A DNA stretch of 29,535 bases, taken from IMG/VR virus record IMGVR_UViG_3300046517_000417, positions 1 to 29,535 of that record, one strand, 5' to 3'. This DNA is from a virus. The notes under the pieces are model-generated. The model saw only the letters and a program-made list of their open reading frames with translations, ran no database searches and had not been told where the DNA came from. This document shows, piece by piece, positions 88-9,722 of this stretch. The position numbers were made by a program, and so were the translations under genes. The number at the start of each line of letters is the position of its first letter. The stretch's first letter is position 1.

Positions 88-741
88 TCAGTTCCCTTGT
101 TGCAGTCGGTCGATCAGGCGGTGCACGGTCATGGACGACCAGGCCACGCCGGTGGAGCTCTTGATGCCGCGGGCATTCAACGTCGCGGCGATGCGGCGGG
201 TCGAGAAGCCGATCTCGATCATCGGCTCCACGATGGCCTTGAGGCTGGCAGCGAAGGCCGCCGAGCGCTCCTTGTGGATCGCCGGCCCTGTAGGGCTGCC
301 AAGTTTGACACCGCGATCACGGGCCGCCTTAAGGGCCACCACGGTGCGCTGGGAGATCATCCGGCGCTCCTGTTCGGCCAGCGCCGCATAGATGTGCAGC
401 ATGAACGGGTCGGCATTGGCGCCGAGGTCGCAGACGATGAACGGCACGCGCTGTGCCATGAGGCCGGCGATGAAGGCGACGTCACGCGACAGCCGGTCCA
501 ACTTGGCGACGATAACGGGCGCGCCAGCCTTGCGGGCAGCCTCAAGGGCGGCGGCCAGTTGCGGGCGTTTGGCCAGCGCATCTGCCCCCTTGCCGGTTTC
601 GACCTCGGTGTAGATGTCGCTGATGTCGAAGCCCTCGGCGACGGCGAAGCGGGCGATCGCGGCAAATTGGGCTTCCTGGCCCAGGCCGGATCGGCCCTGC
701 TTCTGGGTCGAAACGCGGATGTAGGCGATGGCGGATTTCAT
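88..741 (-). CDS. Small serine recombinase (resolvase/invertase family)
   Basis: This 217-aa protein has the N-terminal resolvase catalytic domain at about residues 3-150. YIRVST carries the nucleophile Ser11, DRLSRD lies at 82-87, and [12 protein letters not shown] forms the start of the long E-helix. A short DNA-binding tail with a helix-turn-helix (about 180-215, [15 protein letters not shown]) follows. The size fits resolvases and invertases, not the large serine integrases. I chose the ATG at 741 because AGGGGGAACCACC precedes it and the catalytic domain begins directly after; an upstream in-frame ATG would add 25 residues unlike the family. It probably acts in site-specific inversion, dimer resolution or element integration. 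No partner site was identified. It is the only recombinase in the window. Confidence 0.9.
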
Positions 742-836: not shown

Positions 837-920
837 ATGGACCACGGAACGCTGATCATGGCCTGCATCATCCTGGGCCTGCTGGTGGCGACGTGCGCCG
901 TGCTGTTCAAGCCGCTGTGA
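837..920 (+). CDS. 27-aa membrane peptide
   Basis: ATG at 837 to TGA at 920 encodes 27 residues, [20 protein letters not shown] followed by AVLFKPL. It has one strongly hydrophobic helix from about residue 6 to 22, so it would span the inner membrane once. The stop overlaps the next start (TGATG at 918-922), which argues for a translated, coupled gene. The upstream sequence CAGGGTGTGGAT gives only a modest ribosome binding site. No family is recognised, and the peptide is too short for a firm call. Confidence 0.4.
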
Positions 921-1174
921 TGCAGCAGTGTCCGCGGTGCGGCCAGGTGGTCGAGGCCGCGGTCGAGCCGATCATGTGCGGATCCAGCGACCGGGAAGGA
1001 TCGCTGACCTATTGGCGATGCAGCCGGTGTCGGGCAATATTCAGCCGGCTATCGCGAGCCATCCTTGAAGAGAACACCGAAGTCACCGAGCGAGCCATAG
1101 ACCTCGACAGCAACATCCAGGTCGAGCGCTCGTCCCGCCATAGCGAAGCGAAGGCGGAAGCCATTCGGGGATGA
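920..1174 (+). CDS. Small zinc-ribbon protein
   Basis: This 84-aa protein begins with a zinc-ribbon pattern: CPRC at residues 4-7, a further Cys20, and CSRC at 34-37, with the aromatic pair YW just before the second knuckle. The two CxxC pairs are the usual Zn(II) ligands of such ribbons. The C-terminal half (about 44-84) is charged and is encoded by the 18-base repeat array, so it is probably disordered. Its start overlaps the stop of the membrane peptide, and its stop overlaps the next ATG (ATGA at 1171-1174). Role unknown; a nucleic-acid or protein-binding function is only inferred from the ribbon. Confidence 0.6.
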   Translation: MQQCPRCGQVVEAAVEPIMCGSSDREGSLTYWRCSRCRAIFSRLSRAILEENTEVTERAIDLDSNIQVERSSRHSEAKAEAIRG

Positions 1175-1417
1175 GCGCGCCAGAACGATCGAGCGAGCCT
1201 AATCTGCGGAGAGCACCACATTCCGCGAGCGAGCCACCAGACCGGAGCACACCATTTCCGTCGAGCGAGCCACACGCCAAGAGAGCACCAAAACAAGCGA
1301 GCGAGCCAAACAACCTCGAACACACCAAACAAAGTGAGCGAGCCACTGACCTGGAGAACACCAGCCGCAATGAGCGAGCCACGCGAGCAAAGAGCACCAC
1401 AGCGAACGAGCGACCAT
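1052..1417 (+). repeat. 18-base-period array of alternating 10-mers (main block)
   Basis: Two related 10-mers alternate, GAGCGAGCCA and GAGAGCACCA, with 8 variable bases after each, so the full period is 36 bases. Motif starts run 1052, 1070, 1088, 1106 and 1124 (degenerate). After a phase break near 1142-1172 they continue 1173, 1191, 1209, 1227, 1245, 1263, 1281, 1299, 1318, 1336, 1354, 1372, 1390 and 1408. Every step is 18 except 1299 to 1318, which is 19. The 8-base intervals differ from unit to unit. The last unit (GAGCGACC) runs into the ATG at 1416. The array crosses two ORFs and changes reading frame inside one, so conservation appears to be at the DNA or RNA level. Confidence 0.9.
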
Positions 1418-1419
1418 GA
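1171..1419 (+). CDS. 82-aa ORF made of the repeat array
   Basis: The ATG overlaps the zinc-ribbon stop (ATGA), and the TGA overlaps the next ATG (1416), so it sits in a coupled chain and may be translated. The product is a low-complexity, charged peptide with a 6-residue rhythm. The first part repeats SEP and RAP units; after the extra base near 1318 the frame moves to ERA and ENT units. Because the 18-base units lack stops, an open frame here could be a by-product of the DNA repeat. No domain is recognised. Confidence 0.35.
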   Translation: MSAPERSSEPNLRRAPHSASEPPDRSTPFPSSEPHAKRAPKQASEPNNLEHTKQSERATDLENTSRNERATRAKSTTANERP

Positions 1420-1697
1420 GCAACATGAAAATGGTGTCACTGATCGACGCCGAAGCCGCGGAAGCCAAAACCGAAGCACGCGCCCGCCTTCGTGAAGAAG
1501 CTACGGCGAGACAAGCCGACCTCGAACACGCCGCAAGCGCGATCGCCGATGAACTTCTGAAAATCAACAACATGATCGCCGAGCAGAAAATCAGCATCGC
1601 AACGCTGCAGTACGACTTCGCAACCCTGCGGTTCGAAGTCGATGAGCTGAAACGACAACAGCCGATCGAGCCATCGCGTGAGAGCGCACCATGTTGA
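1416..1697 (+). CDS. Small coiled-coil protein
   Basis: This 93-aa protein starts at an ATG overlapping the preceding stop. After a short N-terminus it is almost wholly helical and charged: a stretch rich in Ala, Glu and Arg (residues 12-45), then a heptad-like run with hydrophobic spacing (IADELLKINNMIAEQ, then IATLQYDFATLRFEVDELKR) ending near residue 81. That pattern predicts a coiled coil. The last ten or so residues (IEPSRESAPC) are encoded by the second repeat block. Composition and codon use look like a genuine gene. Function unknown. It is bracketed on both sides by the 18-base repeats. Confidence 0.65.
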   Translation: MSNMKMVSLIDAEAAEAKTEARARLREEATARQADLEHAASAIADELLKINNMIAEQKISIATLQYDFATLRFEVDELKRQQPIEPSRESAPC

Positions 1698-1799
1698 TCG
1701 AGCGAGCCACACAAGCCGACAGCAACAGACTTTGCGAGCGAGCCAATTCCGCAGAGAGCACCAAAATAACCGAGCGCGACCAGGTGCAGACCGCACCGC
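1664..1799 (+). repeat. 18-base-period array, second block
   Basis: The same alternation reappears with motif starts at 1664 (GATCGAGCCA), 1682 (GAGCGCACCA), 1700 (GAGCGAGCCA), 1718 (GACAGCAACA), 1736 (GAGCGAGCCA), 1754 (GAGAGCACCA), 1772 (GAGCGCGACCA) and a degenerate copy near 1789. Steps are 18 bases. The GACAGCAACA variant also occurs in the first block at 1106, so the two blocks share sub-types. It begins inside the 3' end of the coiled-coil gene and ends about 55 bases before the possible terminase small subunit. Confidence 0.85.
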
Positions 1800-1852: not shown

Positions 1853-2122
1853 ATGCCTGATGGAACTCCGCTAAAGAAATTGCCGCTCGATCTCAAATCG
1901 CTGGCGCGTTCGTACACCGAAACCTCGGTGAGACAGCTGGCCGGCATCGCTGAGAACAGCGAGAGCGACGGCGCCAAAGTGTCCGCGATCGCGCTGCTGC
2001 TTGAGCGCGGCTGGGGCAAGGCGCCCCAGGCGCACACCGGACCAGATGGCGAGGGCGATATCCGCGTCACCATCCGCCAAATCATTGAGACTGTTGGGAA
2101 ATCCGAGACCAAGCCTGAATAG
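1853..2122 (+). CDS. Possible terminase small subunit (DUF5681-like)
   Basis: This 89-aa protein has the segment LARSYTETSVRQLAGIAEN, then AKVSAIALLLERGWGKAPQ. The layout, a Tyr/Thr-rich helix and then an Ala-rich helix ending in LxRGWGKxPQ, is one I know from small phage proteins encoded just ahead of the large terminase, often annotated DUF5681-like or hypothetical. Acting as the DNA-recognition subunit for packaging is inferred from position. AGGAGGGG lies about 15-20 bases upstream of the chosen ATG; a small GGGG-CTCA-CCCC hairpin lies between, which could shorten the effective spacing. The repeat arrays directly upstream could be its binding sites, but nothing shows this. Confidence 0.55.
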   Translation: MPDGTPLKKLPLDLKSLARSYTETSVRQLAGIAENSESDGAKVSAIALLLERGWGKAPQAHTGPDGEGDIRVTIRQIIETVGKSETKPE

Positions 2123-2124
2123 TA

Positions 2125-2155
2125 GAGAGCACCAGAAGGTCTGAGCGCAACACCA
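2125..2155 (+). repeat. Isolated repeat pair 1
   Basis: GAGAGCACCA at 2125-2134 is followed at exactly 18 bases by GAGCGCAACACCA at 2143-2155, with GAAGGTCT between. It begins 2 bases after the stop of the possible terminase small subunit. Confidence 0.7.
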
Positions 2156-2224
2156 TAACGGACGTTATCCTGTTGCGATATCCAACATCGCATCGGCTAA
2201 GTCATTGATAAGCCATCGATATCA

Positions 2225-2250
2225 GAGAGCACCATAACCCCTGAGCGGGA
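2225..2250 (+). repeat. Isolated repeat pair 2
   Basis: GAGAGCACCA at 2225-2234, then TAACCCCT, then GAGCGGGA at 2243. Spacing is again 18 bases, and this pair begins exactly 100 bases after pair 1. Confidence 0.65.
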
Positions 2251-2329: not shown

Positions 2330-2378
2330 GTTCACTTTGCCCAAGGATCTCAGGGTGTTACCGAGAGCCGTATGATGA

Positions 2379-2406
2379 GAGAGCACCGGGTACCAGGAGC
2401 GATCAC
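2379..2406 (+). repeat. Isolated repeat pair 3
   Basis: GAGAGCACCG at 2379-2388, then GTACCAG-type spacer, then GAGCGATCACC from 2397. Spacing is 18 bases. It overlaps the end of the convergent minus-strand ORF by a few bases. Confidence 0.6.
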
Positions 2407-3252: not shown

Positions 3253-4642
3253 CGTCAACCTGCCGCATGGCGGCTGGCTGCCAAGACCCCACCAGATGGC
3301 GCTGTGGCAATATTTGCAGGGCGGTGGCAAGCGCGCGATGGCGGTCTGGCACAGACGCGCCGGCAAGGACGAGGTGGCGCTGCATCATACCGCCTGCGAG
3401 ATGATGCGCCGACCAGGTAATTATTGGCATGCGCTCCCTGAATACAACCAGGGCCGCAAAAGCCTGTGGAGCGCGATCAATGCGCACACCGGCAAGCGCC
3501 GCATCGATGAGGCGTTTCCGCTGGCGATGCGGGAGAGCACCAACGACACCGAGATGTTTATTCGGTTCAAGCAGGAGCTGGGTGGCAGCACATGGCAGGT
3601 GATGGGCAGCGATCGCTACGACGCCACGCTGGGCTCCGGTGTCGCGGGGATTGTCTACAGTGAGTGGGCGCTCGCGAACCCGAGCGCCTGGGCCTACCAC
3701 CGGCCGATCCTCGCCGAGAACAATGGCTGGGCGGCGTTCATTTCGACACCGAGGGGCCATAACCACTGCAAGGCGATGTTCGACTACGCGAGCCGCTCGA
3801 ATGAATGGTTCTGCGAGCTCCTGACCGCGCGCGACACCGGCGCGCTTTCGGAGCCCGAGCTCACCGAAGCGCGCTCGGAGATGATGGCGCTCTACGGCGA
3901 GGACGCCGGCAACGCCACCTTCCTGCAGGAATACGAATGTTCGTGGAACGCCGCGATCCTCGGCAGCTTCTTCGCTTCCGAAATGGCCGCGGTGCGCAGC
4001 GAGGGCCGCATCCTCGACATCGATCCGATCGATGCGCCCGTCAACAGGGCGTGGGATCTCGGCGTCCGCGACGACACCACGATCTGGTTCTACCAGGACG
4101 GCCCGCAGATCAGGATCCTGGATTGCTATTCGCAGAGCGGTGCCGGCGTCGAACACTATGCCGGCATCATCGAAGCCAGGCTGAAACAGCACGGCTGGAA
4201 AAACGGCACCGACCACGTTCCGCACGACGCCAAGGTGCGCGAGTTCGGCACCGGCCGCACCCGCGTCGAGACCATGGCATCGATGGGATTGCGTCCGATG
4301 CTGGTGCCGATGTCGACCGTCGCCGACGGCATCAACGCCGTGCGCCGCGTGCTGCCGCTGTGCGTGTTCCACACAAGATGCGAGGACGGCATCAACGCGC
4401 TCGAGCAGTACCGGAGGGAATGGGACGACGAGAAGAAGACCTTCCGCGCCCTCGCCGTGCATGACTGGACCAGCCACTACGCGGATGCATTCCGCTACCT
4501 GGCGCAGGCCGTTGTCCCCGCAACCACCGCATCCCGAGCCCAGGCGGGCACGTCACGCCGAAGCCCCGGTCCTTACCGGGGCGAAGGCGGTTGGCGGATC
4601 CCGCCGCCGGTCGACCATAGCCACCGAGGCATCATCCTATGA
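3245..4642 (+). CDS. terL: Terminase large subunit
   Basis: This 465-aa DNA-packaging motor protein has both expected domains. ATPase: a deviant Walker A RRAGKD at residues 37-42, Walker B GIVYSEW at 135-141 with Glu140 as the likely catalytic acid, and coupling motif FISTPRG at 165-171. RNase H-fold nuclease: Asp271 (AWDLGVRDDT), Asp328 (VPHDAK) and Asp414 (HYADAFRY) form the acidic metal site. It cuts concatemers and drives DNA into the prohead through the portal. The start is GTG at 3245, overlapping the previous gene. The last 30 or so residues (from about 436) are unusual: their DNA contains a copy of the palindromic repeat seen elsewhere in the window, suggesting a C-terminal extension by insertion. 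Confidence 0.93.
   Translation: MLDVNLPHGGWLPRPHQMALWQYLQGGGKRAMAVWHRRAGKDEVALHHTACEMMRRPGNYWHALPEYNQGRKSLWSAINAHTGKRRIDEAFPLAMRESTNDTEMFIRFKQELGGSTWQVMGSDRYDATLGSGVAGIVYSEWALANPSAWAYHRPILAENNGWAAFISTPRGHNHCKAMFDYASRSNEWFCELLTARDTGALSEPELTEARSEMMALYGEDAGNATFLQEYECSWNAAILGSFFASEMAAVRSEGRILDIDPIDAPVNRAWDLGVRDDTTIWFYQDGPQIRILDCYSQSGAGVEHYAGIIEARLKQHGWKNGTDHVPHDAKVREFGTGRTRVETMASMGLRPMLVPMSTVADGINAVRRVLPLCVFHTRCEDGINALEQYRREWDDEKKTFRALAVHDWTSHYADAFRYLAQAVVPATTASRAQAGTSRRSPGPYRGEGGWRIPPPVDHSHRGIIL
4554..4590 (-). repeat. Palindromic repeat copy 1, inside terminase 3' end
   Basis: Read on the minus strand this is CCGCCTTCG, a 7-bp stem (CCCCGGT with ACCGGGG, loop AAGG), then CTTCGGCG. The outer arms match the three intergenic copies at 11677, 14897 and 17350, but the inner stem is longer. 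It lies within the terminase reading frame. Confidence 0.65.
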
Positions 4643-6975
4643 GCGATGAACCGATCGAGTTCGGTGTAGCAGATGCACCGAGCGAAGAAGACGAGCGCCA
4701 TGACGACGCCGAGTTCAACCCCGCGATCGAGCCGAAGAGCGCAAAAGCCTGGCTCAACCTCCTGCAGGAGAGCGAGGACAATTTCGAGCCGTGGAACAGG
4801 CACTGCGACAACCTCGACCGGCTCTATGCCAGCCTCGAGCGGCTCTCCAGCGACGGCACCGGCCGCATCAACCGCAACCGCGAATACCAGATGTTCTGGG
4901 CCAATGCCGAAGTGCTCAAGCCGTCGATCTATGCGAAGCCGCCGGTGCCGGTGGTGGCCCCGAAGTTCAAGGACAGGCGCGCGGTGTACCAGGCGGCGAG
5001 CGAAGTCGCCGAACGCTGCGCCGTGGTCGCCTTCGACCTCGCAGGCATCAACGACCTGATGCTCTTGGTGCGCGACGATCTCTCGATGATCAGCCGCGGT
5101 GTCGCCTGGTGCCGCTACGAGGGGGGCGAGAACAGCATCTCAGGCACCGAGCGCGTCTGCATCGACTTCAAGCACCGCAAGGACTTTTTGCATTCGATCT
5201 CCCGCAACTGGAGGGAAGTCACCTGGGTCGCCGGCGCCAGCTATTTGACCCGCGCGCAGGCCCGCAAAAGGTTCGAGAAATATTCCGGCGATGAATACCA
5301 GCGCGCCGACTACCGCGTCGACAAGGAAGCGAAGAACGTCGGCGGCGCCGATGCCCGCGAGCGCGCGAAATTCTGGGAGATCTGGAGCAAGGGCGACAAG
5401 CGCGTGGTCTGGGTCTGCGAAGGCTGCGAGAACATCCTCGATGAAGCCGAGCCGCACCTCGACTTGAGGGAGTTCTTCCCGTGCCCGAAGCCGGCGTTCG
5501 GCACCGTGCAGCGCGGATCATTGGTGCCGGTGCCCGACGCCATGCAGTATCGCGACCAGCTCGACGAGATCAATTTGCTGACCGGCAAGATCCACGCGCT
5601 GTCCGAAGCGCTCGAGGCCAAGGGCTTCTACCCCGCCGGCGGTGCCGAGCTCGCCGACGCCATCCAGGCCGCGGTGGAGACCAATACGCCCGGCCGGCTG
5701 CTGGTGCCGATCTCGAACTGGGCGAGTTTCGGGGGGACGAAAGAGATCATTGTCTGGATGCCGATCGACGTGATCGCGCAGACCGTGCAGGGCCTGGTGG
5801 CGCTGCGCAAGGAGATCATCACCGACATCTACCAGATCATGGGCTTCTCCGACATCATGCGCGGCAGCACCGATCCCAACGAAACCCTCGGCGCGCAGCA
5901 GCTCAAGACCCAGTACGGCTCGACCCGCATCCGCGACAAGCAACAGGAAATGGTTCGCATCGCGAGAGACCTGGTCGAGATCACGCTGGAAATCATCACG
6001 GAGAAGTTCAAGCCCGAAACCATCATCGCGATGAGCCAGACGCAGCTGCCGACCACCGCGATGCAGAAGCAGGCCTACGCGCAGAAGCAGCAGGAGCTGC
6101 AGCAGCAGCTCGGCCAGATGCAGTCCGCCTACGCCCAGGCTTCGGCGGGACAGGCAGACCCGAACCAGGTGCAGCAGCTGCAGGTGCAGATGCAGCAGAC
6201 CATGATGGCCGGCCAGCAGGAGCTGCAGAAGATCGCCGACAAGCCGACCATCGAGCAGGTGCTGCATTTCCTCGGCGACAGCCGCGCGAAAGCCTTCACG
6301 CTCGATATCGAAACCGACAGCACCATCATGGCCGACGAGAACGCCGAGAAGCAACGCCGCGGCGAGTTCATCGGCGTGCTGGCGCAGCTATTGCCGCAGC
6401 TGGCGCAGATGATCCAGGCCGAACCGCGCACCGCGGAATTCTGCGGCGAATTGTTGAAGTTCGCCACCGCCCCGTTCCGCGCCGGCCGCTCGCTCGATGG
6501 CGCGATCGACGGCCTGATCGAACAGATGAAGGCCAAGGGCGACCAGCCGCGCGGCGACGACCCGGCGACCGCGCAAGGCAAGATCATGCTGCAGGTCGAG
6601 CAGATGAAGGACCAGACCGCGCAGAAGAAGATCGACGCCGACGCCCAGCTCGCCCAGGCCGAGCTGCAGATGAAGGACCAGCACAAGGCCGCCGAGCTCG
6701 CCAACCAGCGCCAGCTGAAGCAGATGGAGCTGCAGGCGAAGCAGGGCGACAACGCCGCGAAGGCGCAGGTGCAGAACCAGAAGGCGATCGAAAGCCGCGA
6801 GCAGAACCAGGTCGAGCTGCTCGCCAAGCAGCAGGACATGCAGCTCAACCGGCAGAAGGCCGACCTCGCGATCCAGACCCACAACCTCAAGGCCAGCGAC
6901 CTCGCGCAACGGCAAGGCGAGCGCCAGCAGGCGGCGCAGCTCAAGGCCGCGCAGCTAGGCCAGGGCGGCATATGA
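4639..6975 (+). CDS. Portal protein
   Basis: This 778-aa protein is coupled to the terminase (its ATG at 4639 overlaps the TGA at 4640). The size, the position right after terL, and the body motifs (SAKAWLNLLQESEDNF, ANAEVLKPSIYAKPPVPVV, ITDIYQIMGFSDIMRGSTDP) fit the large portal proteins of short-tailed phages. The portal is a dodecameric ring at one capsid vertex through which DNA enters and leaves. From about residue 480 it is Gln-rich, and residues 640-778 form a long Gln/Lys/Ala coiled coil, comparable to the C-terminal barrel helix of P22-type portals. No truncation or frameshift is seen. Confidence 0.88.
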   Translation: MSDEPIEFGVADAPSEEDERHDDAEFNPAIEPKSAKAWLNLLQESEDNFEPWNRHCDNLDRLYASLERLSSDGTGRINRNREYQMFWANAEVLKPSIYAKPPVPVVAPKFKDRRAVYQAASEVAERCAVVAFDLAGINDLMLLVRDDLSMISRGVAWCRYEGGENSISGTERVCIDFKHRKDFLHSISRNWREVTWVAGASYLTRAQARKRFEKYSGDEYQRADYRVDKEAKNVGGADARERAKFWEIWSKGDKRVVWVCEGCENILDEAEPHLDLREFFPCPKPAFGTVQRGSLVPVPDAMQYRDQLDEINLLTGKIHALSEALEAKGFYPAGGAELADAIQAAVETNTPGRLLVPISNWASFGGTKEIIVWMPIDVIAQTVQGLVALRKEIITDIYQIMGFSDIMRGSTDPNETLGAQQLKTQYGSTRIRDKQQEMVRIARDLVEITLEIITEKFKPETIIAMSQTQLPTTAMQKQAYAQKQQELQQQLGQMQSAYAQASAGQADPNQVQQLQVQMQQTMMAGQQELQKIADKPTIEQVLHFLGDSRAKAFTLDIETDSTIMADENAEKQRRGEFIGVLAQLLPQLAQMIQAEPRTAEFCGELLKFATAPFRAGRSLDGAIDGLIEQMKAKGDQPRGDDPATAQGKIMLQVEQMKDQTAQKKIDADAQLAQAELQMKDQHKAAELANQRQLKQMELQAKQGDNAAKAQVQNQKAIESREQNQVELLAKQQDMQLNRQKADLAIQTHNLKASDLAQRQGERQQAAQLKAAQLGQGGI

Positions 6976-9722
6976 TGCGCCAGCTCTACGATCCCGAGGC
7001 GACAGAGAACGTCGACCCCGAGATCGCGCGGCGGTTCTATGAGACAGCCAGCAACATGGCGATCCAGCCAGGCGCGTCAGACCGCGCAGCCGCGCCGGAT
7101 CCGCGGTGGATATTGGGAGCCACCGCCGCCCAGGACGCCTACCAGCCAGCCGGCGCCGATCCCTGGACCGCGACCAATCCCTACCGGCCAGGCTCCGAGC
7201 CGTGGCAGTTTTTCGAGGACAGCCGCGCCAACGCGCCCTCCGACAAGCCGGTGCCGACCAGCCTGGCCGATATGATCGTGAACACCGGCCGCGGCATCGC
7301 CGGCACCGCGCAAGCCGCAGGCCGATGGCTGAACAAGCCCGCCGCGGAGGGCATCGCCGACATCGGCAGTGTCGCGAAGGGCATCTACGACATCCCGCAA
7401 AAAGCCTACGAGACCGCCGACAGATACAGCCAGGGCGGCGCTTACGACCCTGGCCCGATCCTCAACGCCGCGATGCTCGGCACCTCAGGTGGCCTTCTCG
7501 GCGGCACCGGAGGCGAGGCCGGCGCCGTGCTGCAGGCCGGCATGCGCCGCGGACGACGGCTGCCGCCACCGCCGGCGGCCGCATTGGAAGCCAACCCGCG
7601 CGCCGTGATCGGCGGCAACATGCCGCCCGAGGCGATCGCGGCCGAAACACCGGCACCGCCGGTGCTTGCCACGCCGAAGCCAGGCGAAGGCGGGATGGGC
7701 AGCGTGGTCGAGCCACCGATCACGCCACCGCCGCCGCCAAAAACCTGGGCGCAGGGCCTGCCGCGGCCGGCGCCGGCGGCAAAGTCGACCGAGATCCCGA
7801 GCATCCGCGGCATGCCGGTGCAGGATGCGATCGACATCGCACGCACGCAACCGCATCTGATCAAGTCGGGTGAAGGCTCGGAAGGGCTCTACGTCGGTGG
7901 ACCGCGCAACATCCAGACCAAGCAGCAGCTCAACGCCCAGCGCAAAGCCTTCGATGAATATGTCGCCGCCGATCCGCGCGGCGGTGACTGGTACGAACGC
8001 TATCGCCCCGCCCTGGACCTCTCCACCGGCGGCGTGCCCGAAGCCAACCAGATGGCTTCCGCGATGCACGGCCAATGGTCAGCCGGTGTCGATCCCGGCA
8101 GCGAGTTGCACTATGTGCTGAAGGAGCTCAATTCATCGATCGCAGGCATGCCCGAGCGCGCCAATTACGGCGCCCAGCACCGCGCCTATCTGAACGCGCT
8201 CGCCGCCAATGATCCCTTGCGCATGCAGCTCGCCGACAAGACCGATGAATACCGCAACCAGATCAGCCGCGGCATCCCCGGCGGCGAGCCGCTGGTGCCG
8301 GGCGCCACCGGCGTCAATGACTTCCGCTACCTGCGCAGCTGGGGCTACACCGAGAAAGGCGGCGAACCGCAGAAGGGCGCGCCAGGTGACGCCGCACACC
8401 GCTTCACCGACATGGAAACCGCGCTCGCCGTCGATCGCGCCAACCGCGCCAACCTCGGCGGCCGCAGCGACTGGACCGGCGAGCAGCTGCAGGCCGCTCC
8501 CTGGGTGCGGCAGAAGGCGCTCGACATCCAGGCCCGCGGCGGCAAAAACGAGGACGGCAGTTTCAAGATCAGCTACGACGAGGCGTTCACCCGCGCCAAC
8601 CGCACCATCGCCGACTACTATCCCTCGAAGACCTACAACGCCCCGCACGAAGCGCAGCCAGGGGCAAACACCGGCCACATGACCGGATCGGTCGCCGCCG
8701 ACGACGCCGCGCGGATGGAATACTTCAACGACCCGGCCTCGACCTGGGCCACGGCCCCGCTGCCGGAAGGCGTCACCGGCCCTGGCCGCGATGCCATCTA
8801 TGCCGGCCTGCACACGCCAGGCGCGCCCGGCAACGCGATGCGGGTTTTGCCGAGCGAGCCAATGCGCGGCGTCTACCGCAGGCCAGATGGTGTCATCGAG
8901 AACAACCCCGGCGAGATCGCGCAGCCGATGGGCACATTCACCACGCCGCGCGAATATCCGAAGGACTTTGTCGGCCCGCGCGAGTTTGAGCCGTTCAAGC
9001 GCACCCCCGAAAGCATGCGCGCCATCCTCAACGCCGGCGAACATTTGCGCGCCGCGCTCGATGCACAGAACGCGGGATCCTGGCACAAGGTCTGGGAAGG
9101 CGGGCCGCTGAACCAGAGCAATTCGCTGATCTATCCGCGCAATACTGGCACCCGCGCGCAGATGGGCGAACTGTTCTCGCTGCAGGGCGTCGGTGAGCCG
9201 CGCGGACTGCCCGACGTCACCGACACCGCAAGAGGCAGCCTGCTGACACGCTGGTACCCGCCACCCGAAGGCGGCAAGGCCTTCGATCAGGCGCTGCGCA
9301 AGCGCGAGTTCGAAGTGCCCGGCCTCGGCGAACCGCGGCGCGTCAGGGTCGACAGCGACCTCGCCAACCTGGTCGATGAATGGGCACAGGGCGAAGGTTC
9401 AGGCGCTGTGACGCGCAAGGTGCTGGAGCACATCACCGCCACGCCGGAACTGGAAGCCGCCTTCAACAACAATCCCTACCTGGCCGAGCGTGCGCTGGCG
9501 AAATACGAACGCGACAAGACCGGCGGCACCTGGGCCGGCCGATGGAATGCGCCCAGGGAAGACCTGCAGAACCTGCGCCTGATGGTGGCCGACGGCCCCG
9601 GCTGGATTGATCGCGTGAAAGCCGCGCTCAGGACCGGCGCGGTTTCGCTGCCGGCGGTGGCGGCGCTGATGGTTGGGGCTGCGGCGATGCGCCAGGAGGG
9701 CTCGAGCCGTGAAGGATCGTAA
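6972..9722 (+). CDS. Large phage protein of unknown function (916 aa)
   Basis: The ATG at 6972 overlaps the portal stop. The frame is open 497 codons further upstream through the portal gene, but that part is a shadow. The N-terminal third is Ala/Gly/Pro-rich and includes a Gly-rich segment (AAMLGTSGGLLGG) and a proline linker (residues about 240-275). The middle and C-terminal parts look folded, with many aromatic residues. The C-terminus has a hydrophobic helix (AVSLPAVAALMVGAAAM). Position next to the portal and large size suggest a virion or internal protein. I recognise no catalytic motif and do not assign a function. The last 95 bases overlap a convergent minus-strand gene. Confidence 0.8.
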   Translation: MMRQLYDPEATENVDPEIARRFYETASNMAIQPGASDRAAAPDPRWILGATAAQDAYQPAGADPWTATNPYRPGSEPWQFFEDSRANAPSDKPVPTSLADMIVNTGRGIAGTAQAAGRWLNKPAAEGIADIGSVAKGIYDIPQKAYETADRYSQGGAYDPGPILNAAMLGTSGGLLGGTGGEAGAVLQAGMRRGRRLPPPPAAALEANPRAVIGGNMPPEAIAAETPAPPVLATPKPGEGGMGSVVEPPITPPPPPKTWAQGLPRPAPAAKSTEIPSIRGMPVQDAIDIARTQPHLIKSGEGSEGLYVGGPRNIQTKQQLNAQRKAFDEYVAADPRGGDWYERYRPALDLSTGGVPEANQMASAMHGQWSAGVDPGSELHYVLKELNSSIAGMPERANYGAQHRAYLNALAANDPLRMQLADKTDEYRNQISRGIPGGEPLVPGATGVNDFRYLRSWGYTEKGGEPQKGAPGDAAHRFTDMETALAVDRANRANLGGRSDWTGEQLQAAPWVRQKALDIQARGGKNEDGSFKISYDEAFTRANRTIADYYPSKTYNAPHEAQPGANTGHMTGSVAADDAARMEYFNDPASTWATAPLPEGVTGPGRDAIYAGLHTPGAPGNAMRVLPSEPMRGVYRRPDGVIENNPGEIAQPMGTFTTPREYPKDFVGPREFEPFKRTPESMRAILNAGEHLRAALDAQNAGSWHKVWEGGPLNQSNSLIYPRNTGTRAQMGELFSLQGVGEPRGLPDVTDTARGSLLTRWYPPPEGGKAFDQALRKREFEVPGLGEPRRVRVDSDLANLVDEWAQGEGSGAVTRKVLEHITATPELEAAFNNNPYLAERALAKYERDKTGGTWAGRWNAPREDLQNLRLMVADGPGWIDRVKAALRTGAVSLPAVAALMVGAAAMRQEGSSREGS

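What the first reader, a model, noticed from the sequence alone, without database searches (positions are those of the whole stretch)
1052..1799. 18-base-period array of two alternating 10-mers with fixed 8-base variable intervals
At least 26 motif copies in two blocks alternate between GAGCGAGCCA and GAGAGCACCA types. Motif starts fall every 18 bases with only a few phase changes (one 19-base step, one break near 1142-1172). The 8-base gaps differ in nearly every unit. This is not a simple tandem duplication, because the interval sequence is not kept, yet the distance is. Strict spacing with variable fill suggests a ladder of protein-binding sites (iterons, a packaging or partition site) or a structured RNA. 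It lies upstream of the packaging genes. I know of no described element with this layout.
Basis: seen in the sequence. Interest (0 to 1): 0.78.

Follow-up and report, generated by a model that had tools for sequence, protein, structure and literature searches.

The report
Phage guide-RNA array (TIGR-Tas)
The evenly spaced repeats are a phage-borne array of tiny guide-RNA genes of the TIGR-Tas type, a CRISPR-like DNA-targeting system first described in 2025; the window's piece is real and typical, but its protein partner lies off the end of the sequenced fragment.

Summary
In detail: GAGCGAGCCA and GAGAGCACCA alternate every 18 bp with 8-nt variable gaps (10 pairs found, 0.01 expected). The iteron/packaging reading is not supported. 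It is a TIGR (tandem interspaced guide RNA) array: GAGCGAGCCA is the edge repeat, GAGAGCACCA the loop repeat, the 8-mers are spacers A and B, each 36-bp unit one tigRNA gene. The exact edge-N8-loop pattern occurs in 101 viral stretches. All 30 other array contigs I loaded encode one protein family, within 50 nt of an array in 28; no other family is in more than 9. It matches NCBIfam TIGR_Tas_endo (2e-62) and folds like TasH/TasR. The window lacks tas, but its left edge is 87 bp past a recombinase, and the three nearest relatives carry tas 1.9-2.1 kb beyond that gene. Between relatives repeats are conserved, spacers are not. Three isolated one-unit cassettes lie at 2112-2401. Spacer pairs show no excess of matches to array-bearing phages; natural targets stay unknown. 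A new member of a known kind.

The parts
1052..1133 (+). First TIGR sub-array, inside the 3' end of the zinc-ribbon-like ORF: edge 1052 / spacer TCCTTGAA / loop 1070 / AAGTCACC / edge 1088 / TAGACCTC / loop 1106 (GACAGCAACA) / TCCAGGTC / degenerate edge 1124
1154..1415 (+). Second TIGR sub-array: 5'-truncated edge (GCGGAAGCCA), then seven edge-spacerA-loop-spacerB units (spacers 8 nt, two of 9 nt), ending in a 3'-truncated edge GAGCGACC that abuts the ATG at 1416
1664..1776 (+). Third TIGR sub-array: three units, starting inside the 3' end of the 1416-1697 ORF and ending in 3'-truncated edge GAGCG at 1772
2112..2152 (+). One-unit cassette AGCCT-GAATAGTA-GAGAGCACCA-GAAGGTCT-GAGCG, overlapping the stop of the 1853-2122 ORF; same position occupied in relative G040 (34940) with other spacers
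2211..2247 (+). One-unit cassette AGCCA-TCGATATCA-GAGAGCACCA-TAACCCCT-GAGCG (not confirmed in relatives)
2366..2401 (+). One-unit cassette AGCCG-TATGATGA-GAGAGCACCG-GGTACCAG-GAGCG (not confirmed in relatives)
920..1174 (+). Small zinc-ribbon-like ORF (CxxC pairs, seen by direct inspection) whose C-terminus is read through array units; homologous start of array in relative G040
   Evidence: no Pfam/NCBIfam/PHROG match
1416..1697 (+). 93-aa probable coiled-coil ORF between sub-arrays; starts directly after a truncated edge repeat
   Evidence: weak SlyX-like match below cutoff
88..741 (-). Serine recombinase (Resolvase domain); landmark for synteny with G040, L220, L222, where tasA lies beyond it. 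Not itself part of the TIGR system (most recombinase relatives lack tas and array)

Best explanation
The feature is the guide-RNA array part of a phage TIGR-TasA system. The + strand is transcribed with the surrounding operon. The transcript is cut within each edge repeat (GAGCGAGCCA) into 36-nt tigRNAs, each carrying spacer A (8 nt), the loop repeat (GAGAGCACCA) and spacer B (8 nt). A dimer of TasA (about 270 aa, Nop domain, no nuclease domain) holds each tigRNA through the repeated GA..CCA boxes. The two spacers pair with opposite strands of adjacent DNA, so each unit addresses a 16-bp site. Because TasA has no nuclease, the likely outcome is binding, bending and blocking of the target (competing mobile elements or host genes) rather than cutting. 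Shown here: array grammar, strand bias, constant linkage to a Tas-family gene, truncated edges at both array ends, conserved repeats with replaced spacers. Inferred from the published systems: processing, loading, tandem-spacer targeting. Not shown: the targets and the biological purpose. The tas gene of this phage is inferred to lie just left of the window. The confidence given is for the identity (TIGR array); for guided DNA binding as the mechanism I would say 0.75, for blocking without cutting about 0.5.
For: The same edge-N8-loop pattern is in 101 viral stretches. Over 86 non-redundant loci the repeats are near invariant, spacer columns carry about 0 bits, and 1673 of 1770 spacers are distinct. 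All 30 other loaded array contigs encode one protein family; the next most frequent family is in 9. That family: NF052498 TIGR_Tas_endo 211 bits against cutoff 100, Transposase_20, TasH 21kl and TasR 9mty by sequence, and all fold matches with E<=0.001 are TasH or TasR complexes. Arrays begin at a 5'-truncated edge built into the upstream stop codon and end in truncated GAGCG before the next start, as the TIGR paper describes for array ends (PMC12045711). Nearest relatives of the window carry tasA and arrays in the same neighbourhood.
Against: No tas gene or remnant inside the window. Box D is GA, not the UG seen in TasR arrays. No terminator beyond chance on the + strand after the array. No enrichment of spacer-pair matches in array-bearing phages, their own genomes, or for one conserved unit in viral contigs. 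No expression data.
Confidence: 0.95

Rival explanations
1. Orphan or decaying TIGR array: the phage has lost tasA and the array is no longer used, or is served in trans by a Tas of another element.
For: No tas in 29.5 kb; the first sub-array is degenerate around 1116-1172.
Against: The contig ends 87 bp past the recombinase, and the three closest relatives have tas 1.9-2.1 kb beyond that gene; most repeats in the window are intact and one-sided in strand.
Confidence: 0.1
2. Ladder of DNA-binding sites (iterons, pac site or parS-like partition site) acting as DNA.
For: Regular spacing and closeness to the terminase; some TasA loci in the literature are operonic with ParB-like genes (PMC12045711).
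Against: Orientation follows transcription, including in contigs with genes on both strands; arrays sit next to tas in relatives; 18 bp is not a multiple of the helical turn; alternation and truncated edges match TIGR.
Confidence: 0.02
3. Protein-coding tandem repeat (SEP/RAP or ERA/EST peptides).
For: 18 bp is six codons; the ends of two ORFs read through units.
Against: The array changes reading frame after the 37-bp step while the 10-mers stay the same; spacer columns have no codon-like information; most motifs are intergenic (829 of 970).
Confidence: 0.01

Closest known systems
TIGR-Tas, dual-repeat arrays with TasA (Faure et al. 2025, Science, PMC12045711)
   Same: Two alternating short repeats, short variable spacers, 36-nt unit, truncated edge at each end, CCA box in both repeats, Nop-domain protein next to the array, found in tailed phages.
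   Different: 8-nt spacers (usual 9); box D is GA; arrays run from stop codon to start codon inside operons without an evident terminator; the same repeat pair is kept across many phages, where the paper notes variation between loci; some arrays hold more than 20 and one about 45 units (paper: most often 5-15); scattered one-unit cassettes.
TasH of Salicola phage CGphi29 (SpTIGR)
   Same: 8-nt spacers (16 nt in total per the paper), phage-borne; one of only two named phages with a detectable relative of this Tas (23% identity).
   Different: TasH carries an HNH nuclease; the proteins here are Nop only, about 270 aa.
IS110-family RNA-guided transposases (IS621 and relatives)
   Same: Share the Transposase_20 / Nop-type RNA-binding domain.
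   Different: IS110 has a DEDD catalytic domain and one bridge RNA; here there is an array and no catalytic domain.
CRISPR arrays
   Same: Conserved repeats with unique spacers, presumably guides.
   Different: Repeats 10 nt rather than 25-36, two alternating repeats, 8-nt spacers; the partner family is Tas, not Cas.

Membership tests
TIGR-Tas (TasA, dual-repeat) | Two distinct alternating repeats of 8-12 nt | tested here: met
   10-nt edge and loop; B-A 1174 and A-B 1139 steps of 18 against 27 A-A steps
TIGR-Tas (TasA, dual-repeat) | Short variable spacers of about 9 nt (8-12) | tested here: met
   8 nt in 695 of 753 spacer A and 721 of 753 spacer B; 1673 distinct of 1770
TIGR-Tas (TasA, dual-repeat) | Array starts with 5'-truncated and ends with 3'-truncated edge repeat | tested here: met
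   window 1154, 1408, 1772
TIGR-Tas (TasA, dual-repeat) | Both repeats share box C (CCA) and a matching box D | tested here: met
   Both end in CCA and both start with GA; the TasR form UG is not present, but the paper says the boxes may diverge if edge and loop agree
TIGR-Tas (TasA, dual-repeat) | tas gene (Nop domain) next to array, in related loci | tested here: met
   30 of 30 other array contigs; NF052498 2e-62; fold match TasH/TasR
TIGR-Tas (TasA, dual-repeat) | tas gene next to array, in the window itself | tested here: inconclusive
   absent from the window, but the contig is truncated where relatives carry it
TIGR-Tas (TasA, dual-repeat) | 36-nt processed tigRNA | not testable with these tools
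   needs small-RNA sequencing
TIGR-Tas (TasA, dual-repeat) | Spacers A and B bind opposite strands of adjacent DNA | tested here: inconclusive
   no enrichment of predicted targets in 2.4 Mb of phage DNA or own genomes
CRISPR | Single repeat type of 25-36 nt | tested here: not met
IS110 transposon | DEDD catalytic domain in the protein | tested here: not met
   protein of about 270 aa covers only the Nop/C-terminal part of the model
Iteron / partition / pac site | Sites act as duplex DNA, orientation independent of transcription, linked to Rep, Par or terminase genes | tested here: not met
   strand follows transcription, linked to tas; the duplex-binding part itself could not be tested

The most novel reading that the evidence does not exclude
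A soil-phage clade of TIGR-TasA systems keeps its guides as operon-embedded arrays, plus scattered single-unit cassettes, that one TasA serves in trans. Whole 36-nt units are replaced between related phages while repeats stay fixed, implying an unknown unit-exchange or acquisition route and rapidly changing targets. The edge repeat may double as the stop and start context of the neighbouring genes.
Probability: 0.3. Interest if true: 0.7.

Novelty: new member of a known kind. Interest (0 to 1): 0.5.

Why it matters
TIGR-Tas was reported in 2025 with its natural targets, the role of nuclease-free TasA and the way arrays grow all unknown. This repeat pair is a ready search key: it finds about 80 phage contigs that share one Tas family and hundreds of guides. 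Close relatives with shared and replaced units make spacer turnover directly measurable, and a phage of this clade with a cultivable host would allow target discovery.

Tried and rejected
Blastn of the array against GenBank phages gave only weak, off-strand Providencia matches, judged chance. A literature search for the 10-mers gave only unrelated papers. Rfam found nothing above threshold. Ribosome-binding-site, tRNA-mimic and RNA-sponge ideas were dropped once the Tas family appeared. Target search with spacer A followed by reverse-complement spacer B (order worked out from the 8-nt 3' overhangs in PMC12045711): 6, 158 and 3009 hits at 0, 1, 2 mismatches against 3, 157 and 2852 for shuffled pairs. 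Own genomes: 0, 1 and 55 against shuffled means 0, 2.6 and 65. One unit shared by three phages: 7 viral matches in model geometry, 17 in the inverse control. Plasmids carry no relative of this TasA.

Full report
What is there. Window 1052-1776 holds two alternating 10-mers on the + strand, GAGCGAGCCA and GAGAGCACCA, stepping by 18 bp with 8-nt gaps that all differ. Ten edge-N8-loop pairs are found where shuffles give 0.01. The run comes in three sub-arrays (1052-1133, 1154-1415, 1664-1776). A stricter grammar scan (truncated edge, spacer, loop, spacer, GAGCG) adds three isolated units at 2112, 2211 and 2366; 100 shuffles gave none. The array changes reading frame at the 37-bp step while the 10-mers stay intact, so conservation acts on the nucleic acid.

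It is widespread. The exact 28-bp pattern matches 101 stretches of viral contigs and eight stretches in genome bins of Acidobacteria, Bryobacterales and Gemmatimonadetes, which may be phage contigs binned with the host (my inference, not tested). In 86 non-redundant loci the repeats carry near-maximal information, the spacers carry none, and 1673 of 1770 spacers are distinct. Over all fetched loci the 18-bp step dominates (2340 steps) and edge and loop alternate.

Orientation and position. In 31 contigs read in full, 829 of 970 exact motifs lie between called genes, and 748 of these 829 point the same way as the next gene, 81 the other way. In contigs with genes on both strands the agreement can be complete (G001 26:0, G048 44:0, G015 30:0). 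Arrays typically begin at the upstream stop codon, which replaces part of a first edge repeat (TGA-GCCA, TAA-GCCA, TAG-CCA), and end in a truncated edge (GAGCG) a few bases before the next start codon. The gene calls come from a simple home-made caller, so individual boundaries may be off, and some of the 81 exceptions may be calling errors.

The partner protein. All-against-all comparison of the predicted proteins of the 31 contigs gave one family in 30 of them, missing only from the window itself; the next family is in 9. Two of the 30 contigs (G002, G011) are near-duplicates. The gene lies within 50 nt of an array motif in 28 of 30 contigs, often ending 12 nt before it. It matches NCBIfam NF052498, 'TIGR-Tas system RNA-guided endonuclease', at 2e-62, Pfam Transposase_20, and solved TasH and TasR by sequence. 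A predicted model (mean pLDDT 85) matches TasH and TasR complexes in every hit with E<=0.001. At 262-290 aa in most members it is the Nop-only form, TasA, so the word 'endonuclease' in the model name should not be taken literally here.

Comparison with the published system. Faure et al. (PMC12045711) describe alternating 8-12-nt edge and loop repeats, spacers mostly of 9 nt, 36-nt processed tigRNAs, CCA boxes in both repeats, truncated edges at array ends, and tandem targeting of both DNA strands. The sequence-level features fit. Differences: 8-nt spacers (known also for the Salicola phage system), GA in place of UG at the start of both repeats, no evident terminator, and arrays of up to 35 units by strict scan and about 45 in L036.

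The window lacks tas. No hit by tblastn or six-frame profile search. The nearest relatives by recombinase (80-81% identity: L220, L221, L222) all carry tas 1.9-2.1 kb past the recombinase; in the two longer ones arrays lie on both sides of the recombinase. The window ends 87 bp past that gene, so the missing tas is most simply explained by the contig edge.

Spacer turnover. Between the window and G040 the array positions match, repeats are 84-94% identical, but spacers are 11-36% identical, near random, while the small gene that follows is 80% identical. In the closer pair L021/L056 seven units are shared with both spacers, none with only spacer A and one with only spacer B, in largely the same order with other units between them and one local duplication. 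Units therefore seem to be inherited and replaced as 36-bp modules; the number of pairs is small.

Targets. Predicted 16-bp targets are not enriched in 2.4 Mb of array-bearing phage DNA, in own genomes, or, for one conserved unit, in viral contigs. Host genomes could not be tested. Function is therefore inferred: RNA-guided binding and blocking of foreign or host DNA by a nuclease-free TasA.

Noticed in passing
window 2112-2152, 2211-2247, 2366-2401; other contigs: Isolated one-unit tigRNA cassettes; 14 single-unit places in 30 contigs by the strict scan, 12 intergenic, some more than 30 kb from tas.
   Followed up: partly
L036:2900-4450 (-): An array of about 90 repeats (about 45 units) in 1.5 kb, far longer than the published usual of 5-15 units.
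   Followed up: partly
L189 (contig G032, 53597-54430 in contig coordinates): tas appears split into two ORFs (126 and 95 aa), a frameshift, insertion or assembly error, while arrays are intact.
   Followed up: no
contig G035 23441-24604: The called tas ORF has an N-terminal extension that reads array units (SERA..EST..) in frame; probably a wrong start call.
   Followed up: no
window 920-1174 and 1416-1697: Array units overlap the 3' ends of two small ORFs, so the last codons of these proteins are guide sequence.
   Followed up: partly
L112-L119: Array-bearing contigs sit in bacterial genome bins of several phyla; likely phage contigs or prophages, hosts unverified.
   Followed up: no
L269:3379-3424, L270:5078-5123: Clusters of three motif-like copies in recombinase-bearing contigs without tas; may be chance.
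   Followed up: no
window 5481-9722: A 1413-aa ORF overlaps the portal gene (4639-6975) in another frame over about 1.5 kb; its true start is probably later.
   Followed up: no
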